This document shows, in pieces, positions 4,949 through 34,600 of a stretch of 64,000 nucleotides of DNA. Position 1 is the stretch's first letter, and each line of letters starts with the position of its first letter. Source of the stretch: Salipaludibacillus agaradhaerens (lineage in GTDB: Bacteria; Bacillota; Bacilli; Bacillales; Salisediminibacteriaceae). The notes under the pieces are model-generated. The model saw only the letters and a list, made by a program, of their open reading frames with translations. It searched no databases and was not told the DNA's origin. The position numbers and the translations under genes are program-made. The DNA is taken from positions 372,001 to 436,000 of the forward strand of contig NZ_KV917378.1 of assembly GCF_002019735.1 (NCBI RefSeq). Direction: 5' to 3'.

Positions 4949-5103
4949 TTTACACAGATAAAGCATCCGTAAACCTTCTTAGTCAAAATAGCGAGGAAAG
5001 ATGTAACTCTATTTAGGCGGGAGATAACGGAGTTAATGTTCCAATTCACTCCACGACCGATCAGTGGGAGAAGAACAAAACGCCTACTGATTGGCGTTTT
5101 TTA
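4949..5103 (+). repeat. Structured intergenic repeat, copy A
   Basis: One of six copies of a roughly 150-bp intergenic family. It begins TTTACACAGATAA and ends in the 3' hairpin ATCAGT/ACTGAT followed by TTGGCGTTTTTT, which here could act as a terminator. The long-range stem TCCGT/ACGGA is kept. It lies after the 54-residue membrane protein gene. Confidence 0.8.
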
Positions 5104-5397
5104 ATGAGGTAAATTATATAGAAATAAAGCAATAAAGGTTTTTATCCAATTACTTGTGGATAGCCCTTTAGTAATGGGCTGAAAGTTGTTTTTTGGATGA
5201 ATTCCTAGTTAACTATTAACTTTTTTTAGAAAAAAGACTCATATCATCCTATTTATCCCATGTAGGACTTAGATTATCATTATATAGGTATTATCTATTT
5301 TTAAAAGTGAATATCACGGTATTAAGTGACAAAAAATCACTTCGTACGGATGTTCCCACGGAAAAATAAACATTTTTGAATTTTATGAGGTGATCCC
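5104..5397. other. Leader region of the LXG cassette
   Basis: No gene is seen. Small hairpins are present (TATCCA/TGGATA and AGCCC/GGGCT near 5150-5185), then the AAGTGA inverted repeat at 5324. The ribosome site GAGGTGAT precedes the first LXG-cassette gene. Confidence 0.5.
5324..5342. promoter_or_regulatory. Inverted repeat in front of the LXG cassette
   Basis: AAGTGA and TCACTT form a perfect 6-bp inverted repeat with a 7-base spacer, about 55 bp before the first gene. A second, smaller GTGA/TCAC pair lies just upstream (about 5306-5316), so AAGTGA occurs twice in the same direction. It may be the operator for the toxin cassette. The spacing of 7 does not fit the Fnr pattern. Confidence 0.35.
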
Positions 5398-5823
5398 ATG
5401 ATAACAGATGTATCTTCTCTCAATAACCAAATAACAAACCTAAGATCATCTATTTATAGTATGAATCAGCAAGTTAGTCTAAAAACAGAAGAAATAAGCC
5501 GACTGAAAATGGCACTCAGTGATTTAAACGGCTACAGTAGCGAATTTGATAGCAGTAAAAAGCTATGTCTTATGCCTGAACTTACCGCGAAAACATGGTT
5601 TGGGAGCTTAGCAAGTAAATTTCAATCTTTTCAATCAGGGGACTTGCAAAGAGGATATCTTGCCCTTTCGCAAAACCAGTTAAATAACGTTATAGCCAAC
5701 GTGGAAGAAAAAATTTCCACGCTTGAGAGCAGTGTGAATCAACTGGAACGAAATATTTCTTCTCATAACACACGCATTAACCAATTAACTGAACAGAGGA
5801 ATCAGGAGTTGAGAAGAACATGA
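5398..5823 (+). CDS. LXG-cassette helical partner protein (DUF5082, YwqH-like)
   Basis: A 141-residue, almost wholly helical protein with heptad-like N- and C-terminal segments and a central TWFGSLASKF motif, as in YwqH-type DUF5082 proteins. In type VII secretion systems of Firmicutes such small helical proteins bind the LXG domain and help target the toxin to the EssC translocase. It is the first gene of the cassette and overlaps the next gene by the ATGA tetranucleotide at 5820, which suggests coupled translation and a fixed complex. Confidence 0.8.
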   Translation: MITDVSSLNNQITNLRSSIYSMNQQVSLKTEEISRLKMALSDLNGYSSEFDSSKKLCLMPELTAKTWFGSLASKFQSFQSGDLQRGYLALSQNQLNNVIANVEEKISTLESSVNQLERNISSHNTRINQLTEQRNQELRRT

Positions 5824-6107
5824 GTGGCGAGATCAAAATAAATGACGAAAAAGTTCACAAGACTATTGATAATTTAAAAGCAGCGATTCAAGCGTTTGAA
5901 ATATCTTTATCAGCCGATGTCCCTGGAGATAACAGCCTGTCTATGACCAACGAGTTAGCTGAAATGAAACAGCAGTTTGAAGAACTTGTTGCTGCTTATG
6001 AAGCCCTTATCTTAAAACAAGCTAATTCAACGACAGAAGCAGTAGCATCATTTAAAGAAGTGGATACTCAGCTCGCTTCTTCCTTGCAGCCTACGGCTAT
6101 CTATTAG
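5820..6107 (+). CDS. LXG-cassette helical partner protein (DUF5344, YwqI-like)
   Basis: A 95-residue helical protein of the WXG100-like size class, matching the YwqI (DUF5344) position and length in LXG operons. Its start overlaps the stop of the DUF5082 gene. Members act as targeting chaperones together with the DUF5082 protein and the N-terminal LXG domain. No classic WXG motif is seen, which is usual for this group. The gene is followed 24 bp later by the toxin gene, with GCAGGAGG as its ribosome site. Confidence 0.8.
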   Translation: MSGEIKINDEKVHKTIDNLKAAIQAFEISLSADVPGDNSLSMTNELAEMKQQFEELVAAYEALILKQANSTTEAVASFKEVDTQLASSLQPTAIY

Positions 6108-6131
6108 ATTTCTGCAGGAGGATAACAAACA

Positions 6132-7556
6132 ATGAAACTATTAGACATTCAAGCTCTTAATGAGGATATTAATGTAACAAAAAAAGAAGTACAGCAATTT
6201 CAAGAGAAAATCACAACACTTCAGCAAGCCGTTCAAGACATTGTCGCTCTTGATGATGCGTTAACTGGTCAGGGAGGGGAAGCGATTAAATCGTTTTATA
6301 ATGATTGTCACAAAAGCTTCCTGACTTATCTAACGCATTTCACCACTCAATTTACGACCTCATTAGATCAGATGAAAGGTGCGGTAGCATCCTTAGAACC
6401 GAATAATGCCGGTTATATTAATGAGAATGTATTACAAAATGATGTGAATCAAGGGTTAACAAATGTATCCAATACAGCCGCCTCCATCACAGCAGATGTT
6501 AATGATGTCATTAGCAGGATCAGTGATATTGTCTCATTGCAACCCCTTGATGATCGTGGTGTTATCGATGATGTGAATCGAGGCAAAAAATCAGTCCTAG
6601 ATGTGGTTGAGAAGCTTCATGCCTTAGATGAGTCACAAACAGCTTCCTTGCAGACAGTCAAAGCTGAGCTAGTGACAATGAAAAATTACGTGACTGATTT
6701 AGGAAGCAAGTTTGAAAGTGGTGCTGTTTCGATCACGAGCTTCAATACGTCGTCTTTACAAAATATCGCAGCGTATCAGCAGATGACAGAAAGTATTGAG
6801 CAACATGCGTCAATTAATGGTGATGAGCTGACACCTTCTGAGGAAGCTGAAGTGAATGAGGCGGTGGAAGGGTCAGAAGAAAATATTTTAGATTTTGATA
6901 CTGAAGAATACCTAACAGCTGGAAATTTAACGAACCGTGTTGTAGAAGGGCTATCTTACTATGAAGCACATAATTTAACAAAAAAAGGATTTAGTATTAA
7001 ATCTTATGTCACTAATAGTGGTGAGATAAAATATCGTGTATTTAACCCACAAGCTGCTGGAATAAGAGCCCCGAAAACAGGAAGGACGACCAAGTTATAC
7101 TCAAAAAGCTTTATAGGTTCAATGAAAATGAAAAATGTCCCTAAAGTCGGCAAATTTGTGAACGCCAAAGTTGGTGCAGCAAAAGCGTTAGGTAGTAAAG
7201 CGGGGTGGCTTGGGACGGCCGTTACAGCTGGGTTTAATATGCATGGTAATATTCAAAATGGCGCATCCGCCTCAAAAATAATAGGGGATGTAGCTGTAGA
7301 TGTAGGGATTGGAGCTGTTTCACTAGCTGTTGGTGGGGCTGTTTCAGCTTTAGCAATTGGTTCATTTGGTGCTCCTGTTGTATTAGGTGCAGCAATTTCA
7401 ATTGGTTTTTCTATAGGTGTGACTACAGTTATGGATACTATTAAATTTAATGGAAAATCCCTTACCGACCATACAAAAGATGGTGTACAAAAAGTAGGAA
7501 CTGGAATAAAAAATGGAGCTAAAGCAGTGGCAGGGTGGTTTAGAAAGAAAAAGTAA
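6132..7556 (+). CDS. LXG-domain type VII secreted toxin with a glycine-rich hydrophobic C-terminus
   Basis: A 474-residue protein. Residues 1-230 form the helical LXG export domain, with Leu44-Thr45-Gly46 as the likely LXG motif. An acidic linker (about 235-260) is followed by a C-terminal region. Residues about 385-440 are hydrophobic and rich in small residues with repeated Gly spacing (VGIGAVSLAVGG, ALAIGSFGAP, GAAISIGFSIG), and the end is basic (GWFRKKK). No nuclease, NADase or lipid II phosphatase motif was recognised. Glycine-zipper LXG toxins that permeabilise membranes (TelE type) are known, so a membrane-targeting effector is the best inference. The two membrane proteins downstream fit as immunity. 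Confidence 0.75.
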   Translation: MKLLDIQALNEDINVTKKEVQQFQEKITTLQQAVQDIVALDDALTGQGGEAIKSFYNDCHKSFLTYLTHFTTQFTTSLDQMKGAVASLEPNNAGYINENVLQNDVNQGLTNVSNTAASITADVNDVISRISDIVSLQPLDDRGVIDDVNRGKKSVLDVVEKLHALDESQTASLQTVKAELVTMKNYVTDLGSKFESGAVSITSFNTSSLQNIAAYQQMTESIEQHASINGDELTPSEEAEVNEAVEGSEENILDFDTEEYLTAGNLTNRVVEGLSYYEAHNLTKKGFSIKSYVTNSGEIKYRVFNPQAAGIRAPKTGRTTKLYSKSFIGSMKMKNVPKVGKFVNAKVGAAKALGSKAGWLGTAVTAGFNMHGNIQNGASASKIIGDVAVDVGIGAVSLAVGGAVSALAIGSFGAPVVLGAAISIGFSIGVTTVMDTIKFNGKSLTDHTKDGVQKVGTGIKNGAKAVAGWFRKKK

Positions 7557-7583
7557 AAATCTAACACAGAAAGGGGTAGGGAT

Positions 7584-8306
7584 ATGCGGTTAGACTCTAC
7601 TATTAAACGTAATCAGCTTCCCCAACACTTTCTTAATTTTTTAGGCTTTGTGGAAACATTTAAAGTTAAATTTTCAAGCGTTACATTTACGCTGATTTTT
7701 TTAAATCTGGGAGTCGTTTATTTACTTTACGTTCCTTTTCCGATGGTCGTTTACTATCTTATCCTGCCACTGATTATCTTGGCACATATTTGGATGATCC
7801 GCCTATTATGTAAAAATCCATACACAGTTCAGTATGAATTTATTTGGTTTATTGGGATAATTGCGGTGATAGGATCGGTTCTTTATTTGGTTTTATTTCA
7901 AGGCATCGCTTATTTCATGCTAGGTTTATCAACTCTATTGTTTTTATTTACGAGTAATCTCATTTTTGTTATCGCTACTTTTGTGTTTTTAAAATATCAA
8001 CTGAATAAATACTCTGATATCACGAAGAAGCGAAAAACGGATTATATCTATCATAGCGGACTGTTAACGGCCGGACCGGGTATAGGCTATATCATAGGTC
8101 AAGCTGTTATGAGACACTCGGAATATTTAACATGGTTAGTTTTATTTTGTATTTTCTTATTCTTTTCTTTATTTTTGAGCTACGTAGCCGCTAAATTTAT
8201 TTACAAAGCTCTATTTATGAGAGCTAACTGGCACTTAGTCGTGTTCCAAAAGCCACTTAAGCGCGATCGAAAAAAATTCCGAGAAAAAGGTCTCGTATTA
8301 AAATAA
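7584..8306 (+). CDS. Polytopic membrane protein, probable LXG immunity protein 1
   Basis: A 240-residue membrane protein with about six hydrophobic segments and no recognised enzyme motif. It starts 27 bp after the toxin gene with AAAGGGGTAGGG upstream. It is a paralogue of the next protein: both share a fifth segment with AGPGIG/AGPASG and an ending FMRANWHLVVFQ/FMKLNLPLVVFV. Position directly after a hydrophobic toxin gene is typical of immunity proteins. No family name is recognised. Confidence 0.6.
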   Translation: MRLDSTIKRNQLPQHFLNFLGFVETFKVKFSSVTFTLIFLNLGVVYLLYVPFPMVVYYLILPLIILAHIWMIRLLCKNPYTVQYEFIWFIGIIAVIGSVLYLVLFQGIAYFMLGLSTLLFLFTSNLIFVIATFVFLKYQLNKYSDITKKRKTDYIYHSGLLTAGPGIGYIIGQAVMRHSEYLTWLVLFCIFLFFSLFLSYVAAKFIYKALFMRANWHLVVFQKPLKRDRKKFREKGLVLK

Positions 8307-8348
8307 TAGTGTCTTGCCTGGCTAATTAAAATGGAGAGTGACACGTCG

Positions 8349-9092
8349 ATGATAAAATTAGATGAACAAACAGATATAAATACATTGCCAGATGACATGA
8401 GGCAACACTTATTCTCAATGGATTCTAAAGGAATGAAATGGTTAATATTTTCCTTTGTGTTTATTGTTATGAATGTGGTAGGGGGAGTTTTACTTGTTGC
8501 TGATCCTTTCGTGACAACTTATATGGTCATTGCTGCTCCAGTGATGATTATAATAAATGTGTGGGCGTTTGCATTAATGATCAGAAATCCGCAAAAGACA
8601 CAATTAGAAGTGGTGTTATTTACGGCCTTTTTATTTGCAAGTTATGCTTTCGGTCTTCTTCTCATCTCACATAAATTCGCTTATTTTGTGGCAGGAGTTG
8701 AGGGGATAAGCTTCTTTATTGGGGTCTTAATACTATATTTAGGAACGATTGTTTACTTTATACGTTATTATCACAAGACGTTATCAACATTAGAAGGTGA
8801 AGTGGAGGCAAAGGAGCCAGCGAAATGGATGTGGAAAATTTTCGCGGCAGGCCCCGCTAGTGGGTTATTTATTTATCATGGCTTTCTGAAAGGAGCATTT
8901 GCCTCCGAGCTCATCTTAGTCGTCTTAGTTGTCTTGTTTGGAGTCCTTTCAATTTACTTATCTATTAAAATGTTTTATAAATATACGTTCATGAAACTAA
9001 ATTTACCACTAGTCGTGTTCGTTCAATCTAGTCATGAACAAATGACTGAGTTTGAAGATGTTGAGGAAGACGACTATGAAGATGAAAACTAG
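8349..9092 (+). CDS. Polytopic membrane protein, probable LXG immunity protein 2 (paralogue)
   Basis: A 247-residue membrane protein with the same plan as its upstream neighbour and an added acidic tail (FEDVEEDDYEDEN). The start is placed at ATG 8349, which has GAGTGA upstream; ATG 8331 would give six more residues but has no ribosome site. The tandem pair suggests duplication of an immunity gene, either for higher protection or to meet a variant toxin. Function is inferred from context only. Confidence 0.6.
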   Translation: MIKLDEQTDINTLPDDMRQHLFSMDSKGMKWLIFSFVFIVMNVVGGVLLVADPFVTTYMVIAAPVMIIINVWAFALMIRNPQKTQLEVVLFTAFLFASYAFGLLLISHKFAYFVAGVEGISFFIGVLILYLGTIVYFIRYYHKTLSTLEGEVEAKEPAKWMWKIFAAGPASGLFIYHGFLKGAFASELILVVLVVLFGVLSIYLSIKMFYKYTFMKLNLPLVVFVQSSHEQMTEFEDVEEDDYEDEN

Positions 9093-9133
9093 ATTATCGT
9101 AAATTCACTAAATCGAAGAGAGGAACAGATACA

Positions 9134-9418
9134 ATGGAAAAAACACTTTTACCTAATGGTTCGATTGTACTTTTAAAAGGCGGTAATAAAAAATTAATGG
9201 TGTACGGAAGAAAACAGCTGCTTGTGACAGAAGAAGATGTGGAGAAAGAGAATGATGATTTAACGATGTATGATTATATTGGGGTACCTTATCCGGAAGG
9301 GTATGTGAATCCAGAGCATTCATATGTCTTTAACCATAGTGACATTGATGAAATTGTCTTTACTGGTTTTGTTAATGAAGAGGAAGAAGAATTTCAACAC
9401 ATTTTACGACAGGTTTAG
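9134..9418 (+). CDS. DUF4176 protein of the LXG cassette
   Basis: A 94-residue soluble protein that opens with LPNGSIVLLKGGNKKLMVYGR, the mark of DUF4176 (shown here as the family's N-terminal motif). DUF4176 genes are common companions of LXG toxins and the T7SS loci of Bacillota. The role is not settled, with accessory or immunity functions proposed. It closes the cassette, preceded by GAGAGGAAC as ribosome site. Confidence 0.8.
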   Translation: MEKTLLPNGSIVLLKGGNKKLMVYGRKQLLVTEEDVEKENDDLTMYDYIGVPYPEGYVNPEHSYVFNHSDIDEIVFTGFVNEEEEEFQHILRQV

Positions 9419-9470
9419 ACAATAGTTCTTTAAAGGTAATACTCTCTTCTCTATTTTGATTGGTATACCT

Positions 9471-9570
9471 TTTATCACAGATAACCGTCCATAAAACTGC
9501 CGCCTCAAAATGGGAGATAACCGCCACTGATTTCCTGATTGGAGGTTCGTTTTATCTGTAAAATGAGAGG
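9471..9570 (+). repeat. Structured intergenic repeat, copy B (internally shortened)
   Basis: It begins TTTATCACAGATAACCGTCC and ends GAGGTTCGTTTTAT like the full copies. About 50 bp of the middle is missing, including most of the 3' hairpin arm. It sits directly after the LXG cassette. Confidence 0.75.
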
Positions 9571-9727
9571 TTATTTTCCCACGGAGAGCAGTACAACAAA
9601 TTAGTCCCTATCATTAACTTACTTACTATATACATTATTAACAGGTTTAAATAATGATAAATAAACTAATTCAAAACGGATTTAGGTATAATTGAAAGTG
9701 TGACAAAAGAAGAAGGGAGGTATCGTT

Positions 9728-9862
9728 TTGAAACCGTTATTAAAAGGACTTGGTATCGGGGTAGGAATAGGAATGGCAATTTATTTATCAGGACTTGTAA
9801 AAGATTGTTGCGCCCAGCAAGAAATTAAACGAGAACGGGACAAGTTCGGGACGGGTGAATAA
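9728..9862 (+). CDS. Short hypothetical protein with a hydrophobic N-terminus
   Basis: A 44-residue ORF with a TTG start and the strong ribosome site GAAGGGAGG 7 bases upstream. Residues 4-24 are hydrophobic and glycine-rich (GLGIGVGIGMAIYLSGL), followed by KDCCAQQ and a charged tail. It may be a small membrane protein. It is flanked on both sides by copies of the structured repeat. No family is recognised. Confidence 0.5.
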   Translation: MKPLLKGLGIGVGIGMAIYLSGLVKDCCAQQEIKRERDKFGTGE

Positions 9863-9864
9863 CG

Positions 9865-10022
9865 TTTATCACAGATAAGCGTCATAAATCTCTCGGCTCA
9901 AAATAGAGAGAGGTAACGCCATTTAGGCAGGCGCTAGCGGTCGCTAATGTCCTGATTTGACTCAACTACTAATCAGTGGGATAGAACGAAAACCCTCACT
10001 ATTGAAGGTTCATGTTATAAAG
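9865..10022 (+). repeat. Structured intergenic repeat, copy C
   Basis: A full-length, diverged copy starting TTTATCACAGATAA. Its inner hairpin has CTCTC paired with GAGAG around the CAAAATA loop, where other copies have GCCTC/GAGGC. This is a compensating change that keeps the stem. Confidence 0.8.
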
Positions 10023-10023
10023 G

Positions 10024-10055
10024 GAAAAAGGTGACCTATAAAGGCCACCTTTTTC
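10024..10055. terminator. Bidirectional terminator
   Basis: AAAAAGGTG and CACCTTTTT form a stem with one internal mismatch, with A and T runs on both sides. It can end transcription from the short ORF at 9728 and from sspP on the other strand. Confidence 0.65.
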
Positions 10056-10331
10056 ATTGAGTGAACAGTCGTTAAATGGGGTCAAATCGATGTTTAACTT
10101 TCGTCAACACCTCATTTTTTCGTTAATGACATGTCCTTGCCTGATTGTTCTTCTTAAACGTTGTTCAAGCGAACCACCCCTCAAGTACATATGCATTGCA
10201 AACGATACCCGCAAACTTAGTCACTCTCGTGAAGAAAGTCTGTAACCCTCTTCACTAACTAGCATAACCACACATGGATGAAAATATAATTGGTAATGTT
10301 TTCATGTTCGGAACGTATGGCTAGAGAAGAA

Positions 10332-10472
10332 TTATCCTTCACCGTTTGTTTGTGAGACATGATTTTTCTTTTTCGTTTTGTGTGAGCCTTTTAAAGGGGC
10401 TGGTTGACCAGAATCATCTTGATTATTTTTTGGATTTGCTTGTCGTTGAGATTTATACGTGTTTTTTTCCAT
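10332..10472 (-). CDS. sspP: Small acid-soluble spore protein P
   Basis: A 46-residue, hydrophilic, Lys/Asn-rich protein that I recognise as SspP. The family core GQPEPLDGSKKVKNRNH is matched by GQPAPLKGSHKTKKKNH. GGAAGGTG lies 9 bases before the ATG. In B. subtilis sspP also lies next to the aconitase gene, so the order is conserved. The protein is made in the forespore and is a minor spore component. A sigma-G-like promoter is seen at 10506-10535. Confidence 0.85.
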   Translation of the reverse strand: MEKNTYKSQRQANPKNNQDDSGQPAPLKGSHKTKKKNHVSQTNGEG

Positions 10473-10505
10473 TGAGAATCACCTTCCTATTTGTATGGTT
10501 ACTGC

Positions 10506-10535
10506 TAGTTTTTCCAGTAGTCTGTAGGATACTCA
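10506..10535 (-). promoter_or_regulatory. Possible sigma-G promoter of sspP
   Basis: On the minus strand TGAGTA is followed after 17 bases by AAAACTA, which agrees with the sigma-G pattern (TGMATA, 17-18, CATACTA) at most positions. The predicted start lies about 10 bases before the ribosome site. Confidence 0.4.
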
Positions 10536-10590
10536 TGGGCACTTATCCCAATAATAAATGTGATGATAAATGAAGGGGGGCGTTAAATCT

Positions 10591-10845
10591 GTGCCTTACA
10601 ATAAAAATAAACAGCAGGCATTTCAAGCTGCTCAGCAAGCGTTTGTTCAACTAGAAGATGCTTATCAGCAGTTAGATGAGCAATCTCCTGATTACGGGCA
10701 TCAAACTAAGCGGGTGCATGAAGAACTTAATGAGGCAGAACAAATTATTGAAAAGGCGTACGTTGTTGCTACGGAGCATCAAAAACATCAATTGGACATA
10801 TATGCAAATGAATTGATGAACGTGAAGTATGAGTTATTTAAATAA
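10591..10845 (+). CDS. Hypothetical helical protein
   Basis: An 84-residue, Gln/Glu/Ala-rich, fully helical protein (QAAQQAFVQLEDAYQQL, then ELNEAEQIIEKAYVVA). GTG 10591 is chosen because GAAGGGGGG lies 10 bases upstream; the earlier ATG at 10570 overlaps that ribosome site. It resembles small Bacillus proteins of the DUF2524 (YtzC) kind, but I am not sure. It sits between sspP (divergent) and acnA and has its own terminator. Confidence 0.6.
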   Translation: MPYNKNKQQAFQAAQQAFVQLEDAYQQLDEQSPDYGHQTKRVHEELNEAEQIIEKAYVVATEHQKHQLDIYANELMNVKYELFK

Positions 10846-10878
10846 AACGAATTGATAAAAATTAGTTATTGAAAATAA

Positions 10879-10910
10879 AGCAGCCAACTGATTTGTCTGG
10901 CTGCTCTTAC
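10879..10910 (+). terminator. Rho-independent terminator
   Basis: AGCAGCCA pairs with TGGCTGCT across an 11-base loop, followed by a weak T-rich tract. It separates the helical protein gene from acnA. Confidence 0.7.
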
Positions 10911-11010
10911 ATAATTGAAACGATAACAAGAGAGAAGCAAAAAAATGGACGATGAAGCATAAATTGTTATAGTATATAAGAGAAAATGTGACAATTTACT
11001 GAAAAGATTT

Positions 11011-11039
11011 TAGACAATTTCAATATTGTATTATATGAT
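11011..11039 (+). promoter_or_regulatory. Possible sigma-A promoter of acnA
   Basis: TAGACA and TATGAT are spaced by 17 bases. The predicted transcript start would lie only a few bases before the ribosome site, which makes a very short leader, so a promoter further upstream is also possible. Confidence 0.35.
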
Positions 11040-11062
11040 AGTACGTGAAGGAGGGAATACAT

Positions 11063-13783: not shown

Positions 13784-13788
13784 TGATG

Positions 13789-13819
13789 AAACAGCCTCGT
13801 ATTTAGAGGCTGTTTTTAT
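13789..13819 (+). terminator. Rho-independent terminator after acnA
   Basis: AAACAGCCTC pairs with GAGGCTGTTT across a 6-base loop and runs into T residues. Confidence 0.85.
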
Positions 13820-14001
13820 TTTTTTATGCGCATTATGTTTGTTTTGTGGGTAAGAAAAAGTTGAGCCTCTATTTGTATAAACAAACGGCAAGAAAAATAG
13901 AGTTATGAGACACCTTTGGTAAAGCTCGTTCATGTATCTCATTGTATACATCTGATAAGTTCAGCCATACTAGGAACAACGGCTAAAATCGGAGGATAAT
14001 C

Positions 14002-14712: not shown

Positions 14713-14722
14713 AATATTTACA

Positions 14723-14753: not shown

Positions 14754-14779
14754 ATTTGTAATGAATGGAGGTAATAGAA

Positions 14780-14914: not shown

Positions 14915-14938
14915 TGACGAAGATAGGAGGTGAATAAT

Positions 14939-25103: not shown

Positions 25104-25110
25104 ACTGTTG

Positions 25111-25262
25111 TTTATCACAGATAACCGTCCGTAAAACGCTCGCCTCAAAATACAGAGGCGTGATAACGGACGCTCATGTTCTGATTCACGCAACGACCAA
25201 TCAGTGGGAGGAGAACGAAAACACCTACTGATTAAAGGTTCGTTTTATAGCGGAAAACGAGA
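25111..25262 (+). repeat. Structured intergenic repeat, copy D
   Basis: A full, well-kept copy from TTTATCACAGATAACCGTCC to GGTTCGTTTTATAG. The inner hairpin CGCCTC/GAGGCG encloses the AAAATACA loop, the long-range stem CCGTCCGT pairs with ACGGACG, and CAATCAGT faces ACTGATT in the 3' hairpin. Confidence 0.85.
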
Positions 25263-25274
25263 GGGTATTCTATT

Positions 25275-26432: not shown

Positions 26433-26467
26433 AACCGATGACCCTTTATACTGTCATCGGTTTTATC
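26430..26467 (+). terminator. Rho-independent terminator after the MFS gene
   Basis: AAACCGATGAC pairs perfectly with GTCATCGGTTT across a 10-base loop, followed by TAT. Confidence 0.85.
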
Positions 26468-26484
26468 ACGTTAACGCCTCTTCG

Positions 26485-26513
26485 TTTAAATTCTTAGCTA
26501 TATTCGTTATAAT
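26485..26513 (+). promoter_or_regulatory. Possible sigma-A promoter of the second VTT gene
   Basis: TTTAAA and a consensus TATAAT are spaced by 17 bases, about 45 bp before the start codon. Confidence 0.45.
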
Positions 26514-26557
26514 GAGGGGAACAAATAGCTCAATACTTTAGATAGGGGTCACATACT

Positions 26558-27217: not shown

Positions 27218-27310
27218 TAAAGGAAAATGTTTATGTTATAGGCAGAGAATATCTATGAAAACGACTTTTAATGGTACGGAGCTCGTGACATTTGACGTGG
27301 AGGTGTAAGA

Positions 27311-28330
27311 ATGGATGTGCAAGAGCTAACGATCACTGAATTCGTTTTTTTAATCATTTTCGTTGTCTTAAGTACAGTTGTGATTATCATCGTGGTTGGT
27401 GATCGATTAAAGCGTTATAAATTACTCAATCACATTTCCGAGCAGACGCTGTCCGAAACAGATTTTGCTAAATTCTCCCCTCAACTCATTTCCCAGCTTA
27501 TTTATGGTAATGGAGTTTATACGAGGCATATCACAGCTGGATTACTAGATCTGGTCAGAAAACGTGTTATTACATTGGCTAAATCTGAAGAAGCTGGAAG
27601 CTATTATTTTTATGAAAAAGAACCTCAAAAACGAGGGAAACTCCCCCAGGAAGAAGACTACTTAATAGACTGGCTCCTTTATGACGTAGGGACGAGAGGC
27701 AGATTTTTTGTGGACGATCTACTCAACTATACGGAAAATAAGAAAAAACGAGAGCAGTTCCTTGAACGGTTGTATGAGTGGGAAGAGTTAATGCGGCATA
27801 AGTTAATAGAGGAAAAATTAATTGATACATTTCCTTTTTTAAAGCGTGTATTAACCGTTATCGCTATCTTCATGCTACTGATCGGAAGTGGACTTATTGT
27901 CTCCTCAGGCTTACTAAGTCTTTTATTTTTCATTAGTGGTGCTGTGACATTAATCATTATGCTGACATATTCCTCAATGACCCATTTAGGGCAGGTGGAA
28001 TACAAAAAATGGGTCCCGTTTATTCAAAACATTAAAAGAAAGCCACCGTCAGAGTATCAAGATAATGAATCACTTACCGTGAGCTATGTCTATGCCATTG
28101 CATTTAACTTAAGTGACACGTATGTGAAGAAATTCCCCGTTAGGGAAGCTTCTCAAGTATCGTTGAAAAATAATCAATTTCCCCTTTATGTTGCCACCAG
28201 TGGTCCTGGTGCTGTGGCAGTGACGACTGAAGGGGTTGAATTGATCAACGACATGGAGATGTCCTTTGAGCAAATCATTTCACCTATGACGTATGACACG
28301 GTAGACGGTTCCGACGGGATTTCAGAGTAA
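27311..28330 (+). CDS. DUF2207-like membrane protein
   Basis: A 339-residue protein with one N-terminal helix (15-30), a soluble region (about 60-175) whose pattern TRHITAGLLDLVRKRVITL and EDYLIDWLLYDVG resembles the C-terminal half of DUF2207 (YciQ) proteins, and two adjacent helices (about 182-225). The N-terminal domain usual for DUF2207 is missing. Function unknown. GGAGGTG lies 7 bases before the ATG. The 3' end overlaps the convergent gene by 9 bp. Confidence 0.6.
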   Translation: MDVQELTITEFVFLIIFVVLSTVVIIIVVGDRLKRYKLLNHISEQTLSETDFAKFSPQLISQLIYGNGVYTRHITAGLLDLVRKRVITLAKSEEAGSYYFYEKEPQKRGKLPQEEDYLIDWLLYDVGTRGRFFVDDLLNYTENKKKREQFLERLYEWEELMRHKLIEEKLIDTFPFLKRVLTVIAIFMLLIGSGLIVSSGLLSLLFFISGAVTLIIMLTYSSMTHLGQVEYKKWVPFIQNIKRKPPSEYQDNESLTVSYVYAIAFNLSDTYVKKFPVREASQVSLKNNQFPLYVATSGPGAVAVTTEGVELINDMEMSFEQIISPMTYDTVDGSDGISE

Positions 28331-29137
28331 TGAGCGGCTAGTTTTTACTGATTTGGCAAAGCGATTCATCACCCAAGGGTGCAATAGCCCTTGGGTATAT
28401 TTATATAAATACCAAGGAAGAGATGGCTGAAAATGTGTTAATGCTGTCCATATAGTTGTTTGCCCTGCATCATAAGCCACCACAAACCATAACCGTCCTG
28501 TGGCGTTAAGCGTATTTTTTTCTTTGTTTAAAAGGCCGCCTGTTAATTTCCATTCACTGATCTTCTGAGTCGTTAAGTCAGGCACTTTTTCTAAGTGTAA
28601 AAGTGGCGTAGATACACCTTTTAGGTGAAAGGTGGCACATTTTTCATCGAATGTAACAGTTAGAAGAGGCTTCACGAATGTGTTTAGCCAACGGAAGTAC
28701 ATATAAGCTATTGTGTGTGCATTTAATTGTTTGGTAGTTTTCCATCTTTGAACTGACGAAACACTGTTTTCTACTGTCTTGTTTCGTAAAGGATCCAATG
28801 TACTGTAGCGACAAAGAAGTGGCCTTTTAGATGTCGTGTTAAAAGGGGGTATTTCAGACTGTTTTTCAATTGAGATGGAGCGATCCCTTTCAATTGCTAT
28901 AATTGTAAATAACTGAATGATTAAGGCGTGCAAATCATGAGATGAACCTTGCATCAAACGATCGGTGGTGGATAGCCGTTCTTGCAAGATAACCTGAGAA
29001 TATGTATCAAAAAGCTGAGTGATATGGAAGGAAGTTAAAGGCAGGTTATGTGTCCCGTTCTTCATGCTTAATTTTATCTCTGTGGCGCAGTTATTTAGAG
29101 TGTTTGACTGTTCAGTGACAATGGCTGTGTGCTGCAT
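28322..29137 (-). CDS. Hypothetical protein with a DUF2867-like C-terminal part
   Basis: A 271-residue soluble protein that I cannot name. The first 190 residues are rich in Thr, Ser, Gln and His. The last 80 residues (TGRLWFVVAYD, THFQPSLPWYLYKYTQGLLHPWVMNRF) resemble the end of DUF2867, which often follows an epimerase domain, although no Rossmann motif is present here. ATG 29137 is chosen because GAGAGGGG lies 9 bases upstream. It overlaps the convergent DUF2207-like gene by 9 bp, so the two transcripts are antisense at their ends. Confidence 0.5.
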   Translation of the reverse strand: MQHTAIVTEQSNTLNNCATEIKLSMKNGTHNLPLTSFHITQLFDTYSQVILQERLSTTDRLMQGSSHDLHALIIQLFTIIAIERDRSISIEKQSEIPPFNTTSKRPLLCRYSTLDPLRNKTVENSVSSVQRWKTTKQLNAHTIAYMYFRWLNTFVKPLLTVTFDEKCATFHLKGVSTPLLHLEKVPDLTTQKISEWKLTGGLLNKEKNTLNATGRLWFVVAYDAGQTTIWTALTHFQPSLPWYLYKYTQGLLHPWVMNRFAKSVKTSRSLL

Positions 29138-29347
29138 ATGCTTCATCCCCTCTCTGCTCACTATACCACGATATTCTTCTAGTGACCTAAAGAAAAAAGA
29201 ATGATAGAAACGGATTTATCTTCTACCAATGTATGTGTGTACTTGCTTAGCTTGTTAAATACTATTTCCCCTAAATATGCTTTTACCGGTTTTCTCTTTC
29301 GCCTAAAAGATAAATGTAATGTTGACGACGACTACTTGAAGGGGTTC
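29138..29347. other. Short gene-free leader before repeat copy E
   Basis: No gene or clear signal is seen. The region between this point and the lipase gene at 29648 contains only repeat copy E and a leader with GGGAGTGGTG as ribosome site. Confidence 0.5.
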
Positions 29348-29510
29348 TTTTATTACAGATAACAGTCCGTAAAACGCCCGCCTCAAAATAGAGAGGAGGG
29401 CGACATCTATTTAGGCGACGGGAGATAACGGACGCTCATGTCTGATTCACGTAACTACTAAGCAATGGAAGAACGAAAACGCCCACTGATTGAGACTTGG
29501 TTTTATAACA
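29348..29510 (+). repeat. Structured intergenic repeat, copy E
   Basis: A full copy from TTTATTACAGATAACAGTCC to TTGGTTTTATAAC. The inner hairpin is the longest of the family: CGCCCGCCTC pairs with GAGGAGGGCG. The long-range stem GTCCGT/ACGGAC is intact. It lies about 140 bp before the secreted esterase gene. Confidence 0.85.
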
Positions 29511-29647
29511 TTTTATTTACATATTTTTAACAACTTTTTGATAGTGGTTATAGGATATTGAGGAGCGTCTATCGAATTAAATAGGTAATCTTTGACCGAG
29601 AAAGGAGGTTTTGGTATTCGGTTATATTATTAGGGGAGTGGTGACGA

Positions 29648-31141
29648 ATGAAAAAAGTAGTGGCTTTCTTTATGTTGATGTTGTTGTTATTTCCGACGGA
29701 AGCATTAGGAGGTAAATCTGGTACCCCTGGTAACCCTGGCGATTGGTATGTGAAAGATAATCCTGCAAATAGTGATCCAAGCAAGGCCCCACTTGTATTT
29801 GTGCATGGACTTAACAGTTCATCTTATGTTTGGTGGGAAGAAAACGATATGTATGATCTAGCATTAGAAAGAGGCTATGAAACCGCCTTTGTGGATTTAT
29901 ATCCAGTGAATAATATGTGGGATAACGGTTCGATGCTTGCTAGTATGCTAGGTGAAATTTATGAGTATTTTGGAGAGAAACCCCTCGTGTTAGTGACTCA
30001 TAGTAAAGGTGGGGTTGATGCCCAATCAGCTCTGGTACATTACGGGGCTAATGAATATGTATCAAATGTTTTTACATTATCTTCACCGCATCATGGCTCT
30101 CAGTTAGCTGATTTAGCCTACAGCAATTGGGCAGGCTGGTTGGCTGAAATTATTGGCGGTAGAAATGACGGCACATATTCATTACAAACAGGTCAAATGG
30201 CTTATTATCGTAGTTTAACAGATTCCCACACTGACCACAGAAGGAATCCTATTTACACGCTAGCTGGGACGAGTTGGGGTGGTTTTGGCGGTGCACTTTA
30301 TTGGGGAGGACTTTATTTAAGGCAATTCGGTCAAAATGATGGGGCTGTGACAGTGTCATCTTCTCGTTTAAATTATGCAACTGAAATTGCAGTAGGGGAT
30401 TGGGATCACTTTCTTATAGCCAATGGCCGTGCTACATTTGATTTCTTTAAGCCATTTCTTTCGACAGATCATCAGGAGAATGAAGGGGCAACACCGAACA
30501 TGGAGCTTGAGAAAGGAAGCGGAACGATTCTTCGGGGAGGCCCAGGAAAAGGGAATGTAAAAGAAGTGATTCCTGTAGAAGATGATGTTGAAGCAGTGAC
30601 GTTCAGTTATTTATCAGATATGCCTTTAGATGACCTATTATTAATGAGCCCTAGTGGAAAGAGTTACTCATTTAATGACGTGACTGAAATGCATGGGGAG
30701 TTCTTTGGTGCTTGGCAGCATATAGCAAGTGTTGCAAATCCTGAAGCAGGAGAGTGGGTCTTGACGAATCGTCAGACAGGTACCAACCCTTATTTCTTAG
30801 CTGTACAAGTTGAAGGCGGTGTAGCTGACAAGCTACAAATGGAACTGCCTAAAAGGATAAAGGATCCATTAAAACCATCCATTCAAAGTACGGCTATTAA
30901 TAAACAAACATTATCTTATGATATTCAAGTTTCGTATACGACTGCTGATAACCCTTCTGTATCATCTCGATTACAAACAGTTTCTTCAAAGAACGGTGAA
31001 ATGAATCTGCCATTCAATCAGGAAGGGGCCTATACGTTGACGATCACTATTTCAGGAAAGACAACTAACCAAGCACCATTTGAACGAACGATTGTTAAAA
31101 ATATATACATGGATAAAAAAGGTGACTTGTATTATAACTAA
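29648..31141 (+). CDS. Secreted alpha/beta hydrolase (lipase/esterase)
   Basis: A 497-residue exported enzyme with a signal peptide (cleavage near residue 21, TEALG). The oxyanion segment VFVHGLNSSSYVWW is near 50 and the nucleophile elbow reads THSKGG (Ser near 119), a variant of GHSKGG. Candidate acid and base are Asp in GQNDGAV and His in DWDHFLI. Residues about 290-497 form beta-rich extensions of unknown role, perhaps for binding substrate or cell wall. It would hydrolyse lipid or ester substrates outside the cell. GGGAGTGGTG is the ribosome site; terminator at 31155. Confidence 0.85.
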   Translation: MKKVVAFFMLMLLLFPTEALGGKSGTPGNPGDWYVKDNPANSDPSKAPLVFVHGLNSSSYVWWEENDMYDLALERGYETAFVDLYPVNNMWDNGSMLASMLGEIYEYFGEKPLVLVTHSKGGVDAQSALVHYGANEYVSNVFTLSSPHHGSQLADLAYSNWAGWLAEIIGGRNDGTYSLQTGQMAYYRSLTDSHTDHRRNPIYTLAGTSWGGFGGALYWGGLYLRQFGQNDGAVTVSSSRLNYATEIAVGDWDHFLIANGRATFDFFKPFLSTDHQENEGATPNMELEKGSGTILRGGPGKGNVKEVIPVEDDVEAVTFSYLSDMPLDDLLLMSPSGKSYSFNDVTEMHGEFFGAWQHIASVANPEAGEWVLTNRQTGTNPYFLAVQVEGGVADKLQMELPKRIKDPLKPSIQSTAINKQTLSYDIQVSYTTADNPSVSSRLQTVSSKNGEMNLPFNQEGAYTLTITISGKTTNQAPFERTIVKNIYMDKKGDLYYN

Positions 31142-31154
31142 AGGTATTGGAAGG

Positions 31155-31186
31155 AAGCTGTCCTAGAAAGCTTGGGACAGCTTTAC
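31155..31186 (+). terminator. Rho-independent terminator after the esterase gene
   Basis: AAGCTGTCC pairs with GGGACAGCTT across a 10-base loop; the T tract is short. Confidence 0.65.
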
Positions 31187-31191
31187 ATATT

Positions 31192-31309
31192 GTTTAAAAG
31201 GGAAAGACATAAGTGCAAAAGAAAAGCTTCCTTTATCTGTGCGAGGAAAAAGTGATATCTTTGTTAAAGTGAATAAACTTGACGGTTCGATCAGTTTTCC
31301 TAATAATTA
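31192..31309 (+). pseudogene. Possible C-terminal remnant of an unknown gene
   Basis: An open frame without start codon or ribosome site reads LKGKDISAKEKLPLSVRG and continues to LDGSISFPNN before a stop. It looks like the end of a former protein, perhaps a secreted one, but no family is recognised. Confidence 0.25.
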
Positions 31310-31377
31310 AAGAGGAATTAGCTGTTTTTATGTAGAAGAGGACAGTGGGGAAGTTAGATAAGGAGGTGATAGTGCCT

Positions 31378-31902
31378 ATGAAAACATTTCAGCTTTGTTC
31401 GTTAACGATTTTGTTTGATGATGTTCCTGAATCTGGAGATGATATAAAAGGGCAAGAGATCCCGCTAGTAGAAGGGTTAATTATTAATAAAGAGGAAGCG
31501 GAAAAAAATTGGTTGTTAGAAGCTGTCCTGACGCCTGATTGGAAGGATTTTTTTACAGAATACTTAGTCAATGGGCAGTCTTTCATGACGGAAGTAACTA
31601 TTACAAAGCGAACGAATGATCCAGCAACGCTCGTTTGTCATGTGCGTTCCGTCAATGAACTTGAGAAACATCTTAGTGTCCATTTAGAAGGCGTTCTTGT
31701 CGTTAAAAAAGAAGATTTATCAGATATTCTCATTAAAAACTTAATTGAAGAAGGGTACGAAGGAGAAGCACTTTATAAAGAATACCGGCAACGAAAAAAA
31801 GAGCGAGGTCGGGCGATTCAAGGTATTTTAAGTAGTGCTTATGAAGAGGTGAAGGAAAAAGGATATTACCGAATGGGGGCAGATAATGACACGCAAGATT
31901 AG
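31378..31902 (+). CDS. ywpF: YwpF-like family protein
   Basis: A 174-residue soluble protein beginning MKTFQLCSLTILFDD, with EIPLVEGLIINKE following as in YwpF of B. subtilis. Function unknown. ATG 31378 is chosen because AAGGAGGTGAT lies 8 bases upstream, which the longer frame from 31345 would bury. The tail is longer and more charged than I recall for YwpF (136 residues). It is followed by the amidohydrolase gene about 40 bp later, so the two are likely one transcript. Confidence 0.7.
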   Translation: MKTFQLCSLTILFDDVPESGDDIKGQEIPLVEGLIINKEEAEKNWLLEAVLTPDWKDFFTEYLVNGQSFMTEVTITKRTNDPATLVCHVRSVNELEKHLSVHLEGVLVVKKEDLSDILIKNLIEEGYEGEALYKEYRQRKKERGRAIQGILSSAYEEVKEKGYYRMGADNDTQD

Positions 31903-31941
31903 GTGTAAGACCTGAAGAAGTAAAGGAGGAGCGATGACGTA

Positions 31942-32805
31942 TTGAAAATAATAGATGCTCACATCCATTTATCGCATATCCATTCCTTTCACCAAACGGC
32001 TAAACCGTTTTCTCACCTGACCTATTCTTTCGAAGGATTAAAAAAAGACATGAAGGACAACCATGTGGTGGCAGCGGTAGGGATGGGGCTGCGAGAATTA
32101 GAAGGGGGCGAAGGGTTTCCCGATAAAGACGTGCCCACGCCGATGGGACTTGATATGCTTCAAGGTAAGGGAAAGGTTGTTTACTGTGCGGGCATAAATC
32201 CTTACCGTCTCGGTTATAGAGAATTAGATGCATTGGAAAAAGAACTGTTAAAACCAGAAGTGACTGGTATTAAAATTTATTTAGGTTATTACCCATTTTT
32301 TGCGTACGACCGTGTTTATGAGCCTGTGTATGATTTAGCAGCTAAATATCGGTTACCTATTGTTTTTCATACAGGCGATACATATTCAGAACGGGGCATT
32401 TTAAAATACGCGCACCCGTTGACAATTGATGAAGTGGCCGTTACTCACCGGCAAGTTACATTCGTTATGGCTCACTTTGGGGACCCTTGGATGCTCGATG
32501 CGGCGGAAGTCGTCTATAAGAATACCAATGTGTTTGCTGATTTATCGGGTCTTATTGTGGGAGATAGCCGTGAAGTATCGAGAGTTGCAGGGACCCCACA
32601 TTTTTTTGATCATCTAAAACACGGTTTGGCTTTTTGTGATAATTATGAAAAGCTGATGTTTGGAACAGATTGGCCTCTTGTAGAGATGGCGCCTTATATC
32701 CGTTTTATTGAATCATACATCCCTTTTTCGAAACGTGAGCATGTTTTTTATAAAACGGCTTTGCAAGTATTTCCAAAAATCAGGACCGCTCTTCTTCTGC
32801 GCTGA
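31942..32805 (+). CDS. Amidohydrolase family protein (amidohydrolase-2 type)
   Basis: A 287-residue TIM-barrel metal hydrolase. DAHIHLS at the N-terminus gives the first HxH pair, KIYLGYYPF is near residue 111, VFHTGD near 134, FVMAHFGDPW near 175 and FGTDWPL near 240 supplies the final Asp. Members hydrolyse or decarboxylate cyclic and aromatic acids; the substrate is unknown. The TTG start has AAGGAGGAG about 12 bases upstream, a little far. Confidence 0.8.
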   Translation: MKIIDAHIHLSHIHSFHQTAKPFSHLTYSFEGLKKDMKDNHVVAAVGMGLRELEGGEGFPDKDVPTPMGLDMLQGKGKVVYCAGINPYRLGYRELDALEKELLKPEVTGIKIYLGYYPFFAYDRVYEPVYDLAAKYRLPIVFHTGDTYSERGILKYAHPLTIDEVAVTHRQVTFVMAHFGDPWMLDAAEVVYKNTNVFADLSGLIVGDSREVSRVAGTPHFFDHLKHGLAFCDNYEKLMFGTDWPLVEMAPYIRFIESYIPFSKREHVFYKTALQVFPKIRTALLLR

Positions 32806-32840
32806 GATCAGTTTCGGCTGACAAGCCGGTTGGCGTCCGG

Positions 32841-33224
32841 TCAATGTGGCAGGCTTGTAGCGCGATCTTCGGAACCGACGGTAAATAAGCTTTCAATTTG
32901 ACGACTAACTTGATTTTTTAAATGAGCGTTCAAGTATTTAGCATTTAACACGTAGCCACGGGAGTAAATTTTGTATTCTGAAAATGTCCGATCGACGTTT
33001 GTTAGATGCACTTTAAGGCCGATTTTCTTCATATCTTTTTTCGTTTTATAAAATTGTAAGCTGAGCTTATGCAGAGATAGTTCTAATAGACGAATATACG
33101 GTTCCTTTAATTTTAAAGGGGCTTGGTCGAGACGTTCTAAGTCTTTCTCTAACACTTTACGAGCCATTTCAAACAAGATGTAAGATTCTGTAAGCTGTTC
33201 TTCTGTTTCAGTAAGTTTGGACAT
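32841..33224 (-). CDS. Conserved hypothetical protein (YhjD-like) with LexA box
   Basis: A 127-residue helical protein: ESYILFEMARKVLEKDLERL near the start, then FSEYKIYSRGY and KYLNAHLKNQVSRQIESLF (partly shown). It resembles YhjD of B. subtilis, of unknown function. ATG 33224 is preceded by AAAGGAGG with 9 bases spacing; the frame from 33254 is too long. About 37 bp upstream lies a near-perfect LexA box, so it is probably part of the SOS response. Confidence 0.65.
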   Translation of the reverse strand: MSKLTETEEQLTESYILFEMARKVLEKDLERLDQAPLKLKEPYIRLLELSLHKLSLQFYKTKKDMKKIGLKVHLTNVDRTFSEYKIYSRGYVLNAKYLNAHLKNQVSRQIESLFTVGSEDRATSLPH

Positions 33225-33260
33225 AAAGGGCGCCTCCTTTTCAATATAAAACAAGATTAA

Positions 33261-33274
33261 CGAACGTACGTTCT
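33261..33274 (-). promoter_or_regulatory. LexA (DinR) SOS box
   Basis: CGAACGTACGTTCT matches the Bacillus LexA consensus CGAACN4GTTCG at all but the last base, and the inner 12 bases GAACGTACGTTC are a perfect palindrome. It lies where a promoter of the minus-strand gene at 33224 is expected. Confidence 0.75.
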
Positions 33275-33421
33275 GTTTTATTTTACCCTTTTTTAAAGAA
33301 TAGTCAACTGGGATAATGTGTTAAAGCGAGGGGGTTACTTAACGACATTAAGGCATGATACTTGGGGAGAATGTTATGGGAAAGGCAACAAGTTAAAATT
33401 AACGGATAGGAGTGAATGTGA

Positions 33422-34120
33422 ATGAAACGATTAAAGAGTACAATGATAAGTTTATCAGCGAGTATTGTCATATTACTAACAGGGTGTGGCGGAAATAATG
33501 AGGAAAATACAGCTAACAATGAAACAGCTGGAGGGGATTATCCTCAGCTGAGTGAGACGGTTGCGGATAATGAGCAAGAAGCAGTTATTCACACAAATAA
33601 AGGAGAGATTTATGTAAAGCTTTTCCCTGATGCTGCCCCCCTTGCAGTAGAGAACTTCATCACGTTGAGCGAAGAAGGCTATTATGATGGTGTTATCTTT
33701 CACCGAGTTATTGAAAATTTCATGATTCAAGGTGGTGATCCAGACGGCACTGGGATGGGAGGAGAAAGTGCGTTTGGTGAAGCGTTTGAAGATGAATTTG
33801 ATGAATCATTAGCTCATTTTAGAGGCGCATTATCCATGGCGAATAGTGGGCCTGATACGAATGCCAGTCAGTTTTTTATCGTACAAGCAGGACCTGATTT
33901 GTTAAGTGAAGATGATTTACAAGCAGCAGGTTTATCTGAAGAGCTAGTAGAGATCTATATGGAAAGAGGAGGCACACCTCATTTAGATAATGCTCATACT
34001 GTTTTTGGACAGGTCATTGATGGGCTAGATGTGGTGGATGACATTGCCACAGTTGAGACTGAGGCAGGAGATCGTCCTACGGAGGACGTCGTTATTGAGA
34101 CAATTGAGATCATAGAATAA
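33422..34120 (+). CDS. Lipoprotein peptidyl-prolyl cis-trans isomerase (cyclophilin type)
   Basis: A 232-residue lipoprotein with signal peptide and lipobox LLTGC (Cys near 22), an Asn/Glu-rich linker and a cyclophilin domain from about residue 55. The domain has FHRVIENFMIQGGDP (catalytic Arg in FHRV) and ASQFFIV. It would act outside the membrane on folding of exported proteins, alongside PrsA. AGGAGTG is the ribosome site; a strong terminator follows. Confidence 0.9.
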   Translation: MKRLKSTMISLSASIVILLTGCGGNNEENTANNETAGGDYPQLSETVADNEQEAVIHTNKGEIYVKLFPDAAPLAVENFITLSEEGYYDGVIFHRVIENFMIQGGDPDGTGMGGESAFGEAFEDEFDESLAHFRGALSMANSGPDTNASQFFIVQAGPDLLSEDDLQAAGLSEELVEIYMERGGTPHLDNAHTVFGQVIDGLDVVDDIATVETEAGDRPTEDVVIETIEIIE

Positions 34121-34130
34121 TATAATAATC

Positions 34131-34172
34131 AAAAGCTGTACGGCATATGAAGCACGCCGTACAGCTTTTTTA
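34131..34172 (+). terminator. Rho-independent terminator after the cyclophilin gene
   Basis: AAAAGCTGTACGGC pairs perfectly with GCCGTACAGCTTTT across an 11-base loop, followed by more T. Confidence 0.9.
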
Positions 34173-34203
34173 ATCATGTCTAGAAGAAAACTATATGTAA
34201 CTG

Positions 34204-34383
34204 TTAGTCCCTAATTGTATAGTAAATCATGACAATAAGTGTCGCAAAAGCGATGATAACGAAAGGACCATCCATAAGTGAAGCGCCATCGCCACCCTCA
34301 TTTCCATCAGCAAATACATACGTAGCCGATGTCAATAAAAATAATAATGTCAATACACTCATTGAGAAAAATTGCTTTATCAT
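34204..34383 (-). CDS. Small exported membrane protein
   Basis: A 59-residue protein with an N-terminal hydrophobic segment that may be a signal peptide (cleavage after YVFA), a short Gly/Asp-rich loop (DGNEGGDGAS) and a C-terminal membrane helix ending YYTIRD. ATG 34383 is preceded by GGGGG at a usual distance. No family is recognised. Confidence 0.55.
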   Translation of the reverse strand: MIKQFFSMSVLTLLFLLTSATYVFADGNEGGDGASLMDGPFVIIAFATLIVMIYYTIRD

Positions 34384-34457
34384 GTGCCAAACCCCCAATC
34401 TGACAAACGAAGTCTTACTATTATTATAGAATGATTATGAAAGGGAAGCAATTGAAA

Positions 34458-34600
34458 TTTATCACAGATACCGTCCGTAAAACGTCCGCCTCAAAATAGG
34501 GGGGGAATTAAATCTATTTAATGCTAAAGTCCTGATTCACGGAGCTACCAATCAGTGTAAGAAGAACAAAACGTCGACTGAGTGAAGATTTGTATTATAG
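34458..34600 (+). repeat. Structured intergenic repeat, copy F
   Basis: A diverged copy from TTTATCACAGATACCGTCC to GATTTGTATTATAG, missing part of the middle. The conserved GTCCGCCTCAAAATAGG block and the CCAATCAGTG start of the 3' hairpin are present. Confidence 0.75.

What the first reader, a model, noticed from the sequence alone, without database searches (positions are those of the whole stretch)
4949..34600. Family of about 150-bp intergenic repeats with compensating stem changes
Six copies (4949-5103, 9471-9570, 9865-10022, 25111-25262, 29348-29510, 34458-34600) share blocks TTTATCACAGATAACCGTCC, CGCCTCAAAATA, ATCAGTGGGAG and GGTTCGTTTTATAG. All are in the same orientation and none is inside a gene. 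Three stems recur with compensating changes: an inner hairpin around a CAAAATA-type loop (CGCCTC/GAGGCG in D, CGCCCGCCTC/GAGGAGGGCG in E, CTCTC/GAGAG in C), a long-range stem GTCCGT/ACGGAC, and a 3' hairpin CAGTGGG/CCCACTG. Conserved loops with varying but paired stems point to selection on RNA (or hairpin DNA) structure. I do not recognise it as a named riboswitch or known repeat class.
Basis: partly seen in the sequence, partly recalled or inferred. Interest (0 to 1): 0.75.

Follow-up and report, generated by a model that had tools for sequence, protein, structure and literature searches.

The report
Hairpin-ended mobile DNA repeat of Bacilli
The six repeats are copies of a short, gene-less mobile DNA element that can fold into two hairpins and inserts at the sequence TTTAT, with well over a hundred copies in this genome and relatives in many other genera of Bacilli.

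Summary
They are mobile: among this genome and two relatives six insertion/empty-site loci were found, and at five the empty allele has one TTTAT where the filled allele has TTTAT-element-TTTAT. Copies follow the direction of replication (115 of 136 listed sites after collapsing neighbours), also between oppositely directed genes (21 of 25). None of 141 lies wholly inside a called gene; two overlap a gene end. A covariance model finds the family in 47 of 398 genomes of the class, 28 of 146 genera, own included. Between lineages the stems change with compensation (15 of 34 pairs; slid controls 1-4) without excess of G.T over A.C, which favours folding as DNA. Best reading: a bcr1-like non-autonomous element moved as single-stranded DNA on the lagging-strand template by an enzyme acting in trans. 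The enzyme is unidentified: Y1 transposase was not found in this genome or in G004. Homology to bcr1 could not be tested.

The parts
4950..5103 (+). decayed full-length copy, shared with relative G004
   Evidence: profile match 4950-5099; inside a 97% identical block with G004, which has a copy there
9471..9555 (+). copy lacking the right hairpin, as if deleted between the two CTGATT repeats
   Evidence: profile positions 1-91 only, then GGAGGTTCGTTTTAT
9865..10018 (+). full-length copy, shared with G004
   Evidence: colinear G004 copy
25111..25248 (+). 138-bp copy, absent from both G004 and G006 at the same place
   Evidence: empty sites with one TTTAT
29349..29506 (+). full-length copy; G004 has a shortened form at the same site
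34458..34598 (+). decayed full-length copy; G004 has pieces of one in the colinear block
51380..51434 (+). deletion derivative of the variant subfamily (TTTATCC..CTTAAGGGGCAGT); G006 holds a complete copy here. Not found by the profile on its own
35773..35799 (+). possible right-end fragment of a related copy (weak). Not found by the profile
   Evidence: direct-repeat family D3; sequence read

Best explanation
A non-autonomous mobile element of about 0.1-0.16 kb (about 0.2-0.34 kb in longer variants of other genera), bcr1-like. Shown: it inserts at TTTAT and leaves TTTAT on both sides; it lies between genes, is oriented with replication, and its two-hairpin fold is kept by compensating changes between lineages. 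Inferred: the strand that folds is the one exposed as lagging-strand template; a single-strand-specific enzyme of the HUH (IS200/IS605-like) type, acting in trans, recognises the left and right hairpins, cuts after the two TTTATs, and pastes the single-stranded element 3' of a TTTAT in another lagging-strand template. In the window's own genome that enzyme seems to have been lost, and most copies are decaying.
For: Empty sites. Tandem copies sharing one pentanucleotide. Orientation: 129 of 150 listed copies, 115 of 136 after collapsing neighbours, follow the leading-strand direction; between convergent or divergent genes 33 of 37, collapsed 21 of 25; same in G006, 96 of 114 unambiguous of 124 positions copied. 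0 of 141 wholly in called genes although 53% of TTTAT sites are. Covariation across lineages with G.T no commoner than A.C. No terminal inverted repeats (by eye). Copies 95-97% identical between genera and patchy BLAST presence within one genus. IS608 and ISDra2 target the lagging-strand template and TnpA recognises subterminal structures (PMC6006769, abstract).
Against: No Y1_Tnp (PF01797) found in G000 or G004, though each has insertions the other lacks; 4 of 21 other element-bearing genomes also lack it; no TnpB (PF07282) in G000, G004, G006. No longer element with the same ends and a gene was seen in the 145 loci (0.98 Mb) scanned, and the G006 IS200-like element has different ends. A duplication of TTTAT by another enzyme would look the same at sequence level. 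One insertion/empty pair (G004 against G006) lacks TTTAT in the empty allele. The replication bias partly overlaps with gene direction: 379 of 474 called genes are co-oriented. In the 34 copies of this genome and near relatives G.T (56) slightly exceeds A.C (41) at consensus Watson-Crick pairs, and two consensus pairs are themselves U.G.
Confidence: 0.6

Rival explanations
1. A functional structured RNA (regulatory or other) dispersed through the genome, where each copy is kept for its RNA.
For: Strong covariation across lineages; intergenic position; two U.G consensus pairs in the copies of this genome; in B. cereus about half of the bcr copies were part of transcripts, bcr1-bcr3 often in untranslated or intergenic parts (PMC3446304, passages).
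Against: Copies in one genome lose pairing; between lineages G.T is not above A.C; presence/absence between genomes whose aligned blocks are 74-98% identical; no BLAST match in 5 of 7 same-genus relatives (one 161-base query, distant subfamilies could be missed); no Rfam match.
Confidence: 0.08
2. A rolling-circle element (IS91/Helitron-like HUH Y2 or Rep enzyme) giving tandem multimers.
For: In four arrays (6, 4, 3 and 2 units) all 11 internal junctions read TATAT while the left outer ends read TTTAT, as if multimers of one master had been inserted; a hairpin near the 3' end; replication bias.
Against: Three two-unit pairs have TTTAT at the junction, as separate insertions would give. TTTAT at both ends and a conserved left hairpin are not typical of IS91 (recalled). 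Unequal recombination also makes arrays. No such enzyme was searched for.
Confidence: 0.15
3. A DDE-type MITE, or a cassette of a site-specific recombinase, with TTTAT as a duplicated target.
For: TTTAT on both sides in 51 of 92 full-length copies and once in five empty sites.
Against: No terminal inverted repeats; the target is nearly always the same sequence; DDE transposition does not by itself predict replication-strand orientation or conserved asymmetric hairpins.
Confidence: 0.12

Closest known systems
bcr1 (group A repeats bcr1-bcr3 of the Bacillus cereus group)
   Same: Listed with 147 and 167 bp and a conserved structure (PMC2267715, passages); TTTAT motif tied to mobility (PMC6542083, passages); counted among MITEs (PMC3733652, passage). 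TTTAT at each end and about 155 bp are recalled from the abstract of Okstad 2004 (not held).
   Different: Described as restricted to the B. cereus group; the present family is in 27 genera besides its own in the sample. No bcr1 sequence could be compared. Orientation with replication and DNA-type covariation were not mentioned in the passages seen.
PATE: ends-only derivatives of IS200/IS605 elements
   Same: Only palindromic ends, no gene, often moved by a transposase in trans (PMC7290912, passages); lagging-strand template preference of IS608 and ISDra2 (PMC6006769, abstract).
   Different: No parent IS with the same ends found in the loci scanned; Y1 transposase not found in two genomes that each have insertions the other lacks.
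REP/REPIN with TnpA-REP (RAYT)
   Same: Intergenic palindromic DNA thought to be spread by single-strand enzymes (PMC6006769, abstract).
   Different: REPs are 20-40 bp with GTAG or CGTC tags (PMC3733652, title and start of abstract); this is mostly 138-161 bp with TTTAT ends; no Y1 protein found in G000.

Membership tests
bcr1 | about 150 bp, multi-copy, intergenic | tested here: met
bcr1 | TTTAT at both ends, mobility | tested here: met
   51 of 92 full-length copies have TTTAT at both ends; five of six empty sites with TTTAT
bcr1 | sequence homology to B. cereus bcr1 | not testable with these tools
   no bcr1 sequence reached: paper not held, accessions not held, no genome with the recalled 16S signature among 398
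bcr1 | restricted to the B. cereus group (as published) | tested here: not met
   own genome lacks the recalled B. cereus-group 16S signature; the 80 listed named loci of relatives are in other genera or unplaced Bacillus species
IS200/IS605-derived PATE | subterminal hairpins at both ends, no terminal inverted repeats, fixed short target | tested here: met
   predicted folds and covariation, sites, ends by eye
IS200/IS605-derived PATE | orientation with the lagging-strand template | tested here: met
IS200/IS605-derived PATE | parent IS with the same ends | tested here: inconclusive
   none in 145 loci of 0.98 Mb; 16 and 20 Y1 loci scanned with the repeat profile gave only neighbouring copies; whole genomes were not scanned for this
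IS200/IS605-derived PATE | Y1 transposase available in the genome | tested here: not met
   none found in G000 and G004; present in 17 of 21 other element-bearing genomes
DDE-type MITE | terminal inverted repeats | tested here: not met
   TTTATCACAGATAACC and the reverse complement of GGTTCGTTTTAT do not match (by eye)
Rfam RNA family | match at gathering score | tested here: not met
   0 matches in the 64-kb window

The most novel reading that the evidence does not exclude
A Bacilli-wide superfamily of hairpin DNA parasites moved during replication by an enzyme that is not the Y1 transposase, perhaps a host-encoded one, so that element and mobiliser are never linked.
Probability: 0.25. Interest if true: 0.8.

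Novelty: new member of a known kind. Interest (0 to 1): 0.5.

Why it matters
bcr1 has been treated as a B. cereus-group speciality whose way of moving is unknown. If this superfamily is the same thing, it is an abundant parasite of Bacilli at large, and its strand bias, empty sites and DNA-type covariation turn the open question of how it moves into a bench test. Such repeats can also be mistaken for structured RNAs in covariation screens.

Tried and rejected
Rfam: nothing. Y1 transposase as linked mobiliser: not found in G000 and G004; the G006 IS200-like element (745 bp, three copies compared) has other ends; of 16 Y1 loci scanned with the repeat profile three have copies nearby, of 20 more one has, none with shared ends. 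TnpB: no match in G000, G004, G006, two in G019. Longer autonomous form: left-only and right-only matches 200-4000 bp apart were listed in loci L105-L249; the distances are 202-392 bp, and 1284 bp once between two neighbouring copies; nine regions were read and are variants with extra hairpins or neighbouring copies. Orientation explained by gene direction alone: not sufficient. Blastn against plasmids with eight queries matched records of Pseudalkalibacillus, Peribacillus, Cytobacillus and one of Klebsiella; the window copy itself matched none. One query against phages matched none. One exact-pattern scan of viral contigs found nothing. A tRNA control for G.U counts was begun and dropped: eight tRNA lines only.

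Results that weigh against the reading: one of six insertion/empty loci has no TTTAT in the empty allele (G004 16538 against G006; the flanks align poorly); at a second locus one of the two relatives has TTTGT. A further row (G006 74054 against the window) is a deletion, not an empty site, and is not counted. Two of the 141 copies overlap the end of a called gene by more than 40 bases; the gene caller is my own simple one, and called genes cover 64% of the stretches. The set of 33 convergent/divergent sites outside exception-picked stretches (32 follow replication) leaves out most exceptions by construction; the 37-site set is enriched in them. G.T against A.C in other cuts: 36/35 of 1957 cells over all 34 pairs in the best 59 rows; 21/31 of 1636 and 13/20 of 778 in the main helices; in the 34 copies of A2, 56/41 of 1321. 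G022's single match did not hold up (E 0.19) and is not counted as presence. Alignment A4 was fitted to the model, so its 30 of 34 double-changed pairs lean towards the structure; A3 (MAFFT) gives 15 of 34. Loci L138 onward were picked by an exact left-stem pattern, which biases the left stem and the cross-genus identities. E-values of the models are rough; a few of the 47 genomes rest on one match near 1e-6.
Full report
Observation. The six copies exist on one strand between ORFs. They belong to a family with at least 150 copies in the 4.32 Mb genome (150 of 2563 candidates were scored, all matched) and 242 left ends within one mismatch, against 8 for the reversed pattern. Consensus: TTTATCACAGATAACCGTCCGTAAAAC, a stem-loop, GATAACGGACGCTAATGTCCTGATT, a linker, then CAATCAGTGGGAG-loop-CTCCCACTGATTG and AAGGTTCGTTTTAT. 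Length classes are about 159, 138 and 96 bp. Two shortened forms recur: one without the left hairpin (as if deleted between GATAAC repeats) and one without the right hairpin (between CTGATT repeats).

Mobility. Relatives G004 and G006 were compared with the window over one 100-kb region each; aligned blocks are 88-98% identical to G004 and 74-92% to G006. Between two genes that read by eye as tsf and pyrH the joined flanks matched G004 at 95% and G006 at 93% in one piece, and G004 shows AAGAA-TTTAT-GATATTG where this genome has AAGAA-TTTAT-element-TTTAT-GATATTG. A sixth locus (G004 16538 against G006) has no TTTAT in the empty allele. So five of six loci are clean. Of 92 full-length copies 66 have TTTAT on the left, 64 on the right, 51 on both sides.

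Orientation and placement. GC skew at 21 sampled points changes sign between 2.82 and 2.93 Mb and between 0.52 and 0.64 Mb; by the usual rule the origin lies at the first and the terminus at the second, and 2.86 and 0.62 Mb were used. Of 150 copies 129 follow the leading-strand direction, 115 of 136 after collapsing neighbours. Called genes do so in 379 of 474 cases. Between convergent and divergent genes, where transcription gives no net direction, 33 of 37 copies follow replication, 32 of 33 outside the stretches that I had fetched because they held exceptions, and 21 of 25 after collapsing neighbours. In G006, 96 of 114 unambiguous positions do the same, out of 124 copied from the listing. 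None of 141 copies lies wholly inside a called gene and two overlap a gene end, though 53% of TTTAT sites lie in called genes.

Distribution. Of 40 relatives six gave a BLAST match to one copy; five hold up, since the G022 match does not. The family is abundant in G004, G006 and G019, and five of seven same-genus genomes gave no match. Model R2 (14 sequences) finds 47 of 398 genomes of the class and 28 of 146 genera at E 1e-4, own genome included, with at most seven candidates scored per genome. The class is unnamed there; Bacilli is inferred from named relatives. A pattern from one subfamily hit 112 stretches in named genomes, of which 80 were listed: among others Niallia, Lysinibacillus, Rummeliibacillus, Terrilactibacillus, Heyndrickxia, Cytobacillus, Sporosarcina, Oceanobacillus, Gottfriedia and Paenibacillus. 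Copies from Lysinibacillus antri and Sporosarcina sp. are 97.5% identical, and copies from Niallia endozanthoxylica and Terrilactibacillus laevilacticus 95.6%, which suggests transfer between genera; both pairs were picked by the pattern.

Structure. Among 34 copies, 26 from this genome and 8 from relatives, structure decays: 16 of 48 pairs show double changes against 8-16 in slid controls, though pairing and covariation score are above them. Among 14 sequences from diverse lineages 15 of 34 pairs show double changes against 1-4; in 83 model-aligned sequences 30 of 34 against 13-19, with 236 double-changed cells against 21-46 (alignment fitted to the model). In the three main helices of that set 2029 of 2152 cells are Watson-Crick, 29 are G.T and 46 A.C. 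A structural RNA would normally show many more G.U than A.C (general knowledge; no control was completed), so the fold is probably read as DNA. The 34 copies of this genome and its relatives show 56 G.T against 41 A.C and two U.G consensus pairs, which is neutral or slightly the other way.

Mechanism. Fixed TTTAT, two asymmetric hairpins, no terminal inverted repeats and lagging-template orientation are the marks of single-strand transposition of the IS608/ISDra2 type (PMC6006769, abstract; PMC7290912, passages). The weak point is the enzyme: no Y1_Tnp found in G000 or G004, one or more matches in 17 of 21 other element-bearing genomes without visible link to the repeat, and no TnpB match in G000, G004 or G006. 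Either the enzyme came and went, or it is of another type. Outside tandem arrays the best full-length pair among 109 sampled copies is 95.6% identical, a left-hairpin-less copy matches a full one exactly over 88 bases, and the median best identity is 87%, which fits a family that has slowed or stopped.

Relation to bcr1. Papers seen in passages describe bcr1 as a 147-167 bp intergenic repeat, structured, with a TTTAT motif, mobile, and restricted to the B. cereus group (PMC6542083, PMC2267715, PMC3446304, PMC8725734, PMC3733652). In PMC4877379 only a reference-list entry was seen. The resemblance is close, but no bcr1 sequence could be compared, so I call this bcr1-like. Searches for bcr1 and for TTTAT repeats in Bacillus (listings, with the passages above) showed no description of this superfamily; most subscription papers are not in that library.

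Noticed in passing
G000:C1 1671514-1672431, 2265979-2266594, 2267049-2267514, 3196867-3197178; also 498914, 2353944, 2554391: Tandem copies. In four arrays of 6, 4, 3 and 2 units all 11 internal junctions read TATAT while the left outer ends read TTTAT, as if multimers of one master had been inserted; three two-unit pairs have TTTAT at the junction.
   Followed up: partly
L156, L158, L160, L170, L188, L212, L240: Longer variants (about 210-335 bp) carry extra hairpins with ACA-TCC-TGT-like or ACA-GGA-TGT-like triloops, in either orientation, between the two domains or inside the right loop: nested small palindromes.
   Followed up: partly
L116 (Klebsiella grimontii plasmid pNY3A, CP079755.1): A decayed copy in an enterobacterial plasmid record, far outside Bacilli; transfer, contamination or misassembly not resolved.
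   Followed up: no
G006; L282-L286: G006 holds very many copies: 25 profile matches, full or partial, in one 100-kb region against 14 in the matching G004 region, and a distinct TTTATCCCACTCTTAAGG subfamily.
   Followed up: partly
L109 (G006:C1:320000-323000): A broken Y1 transposase gene lies between complete copies of the repeat in the same orientation; no shared ends seen.
   Followed up: partly
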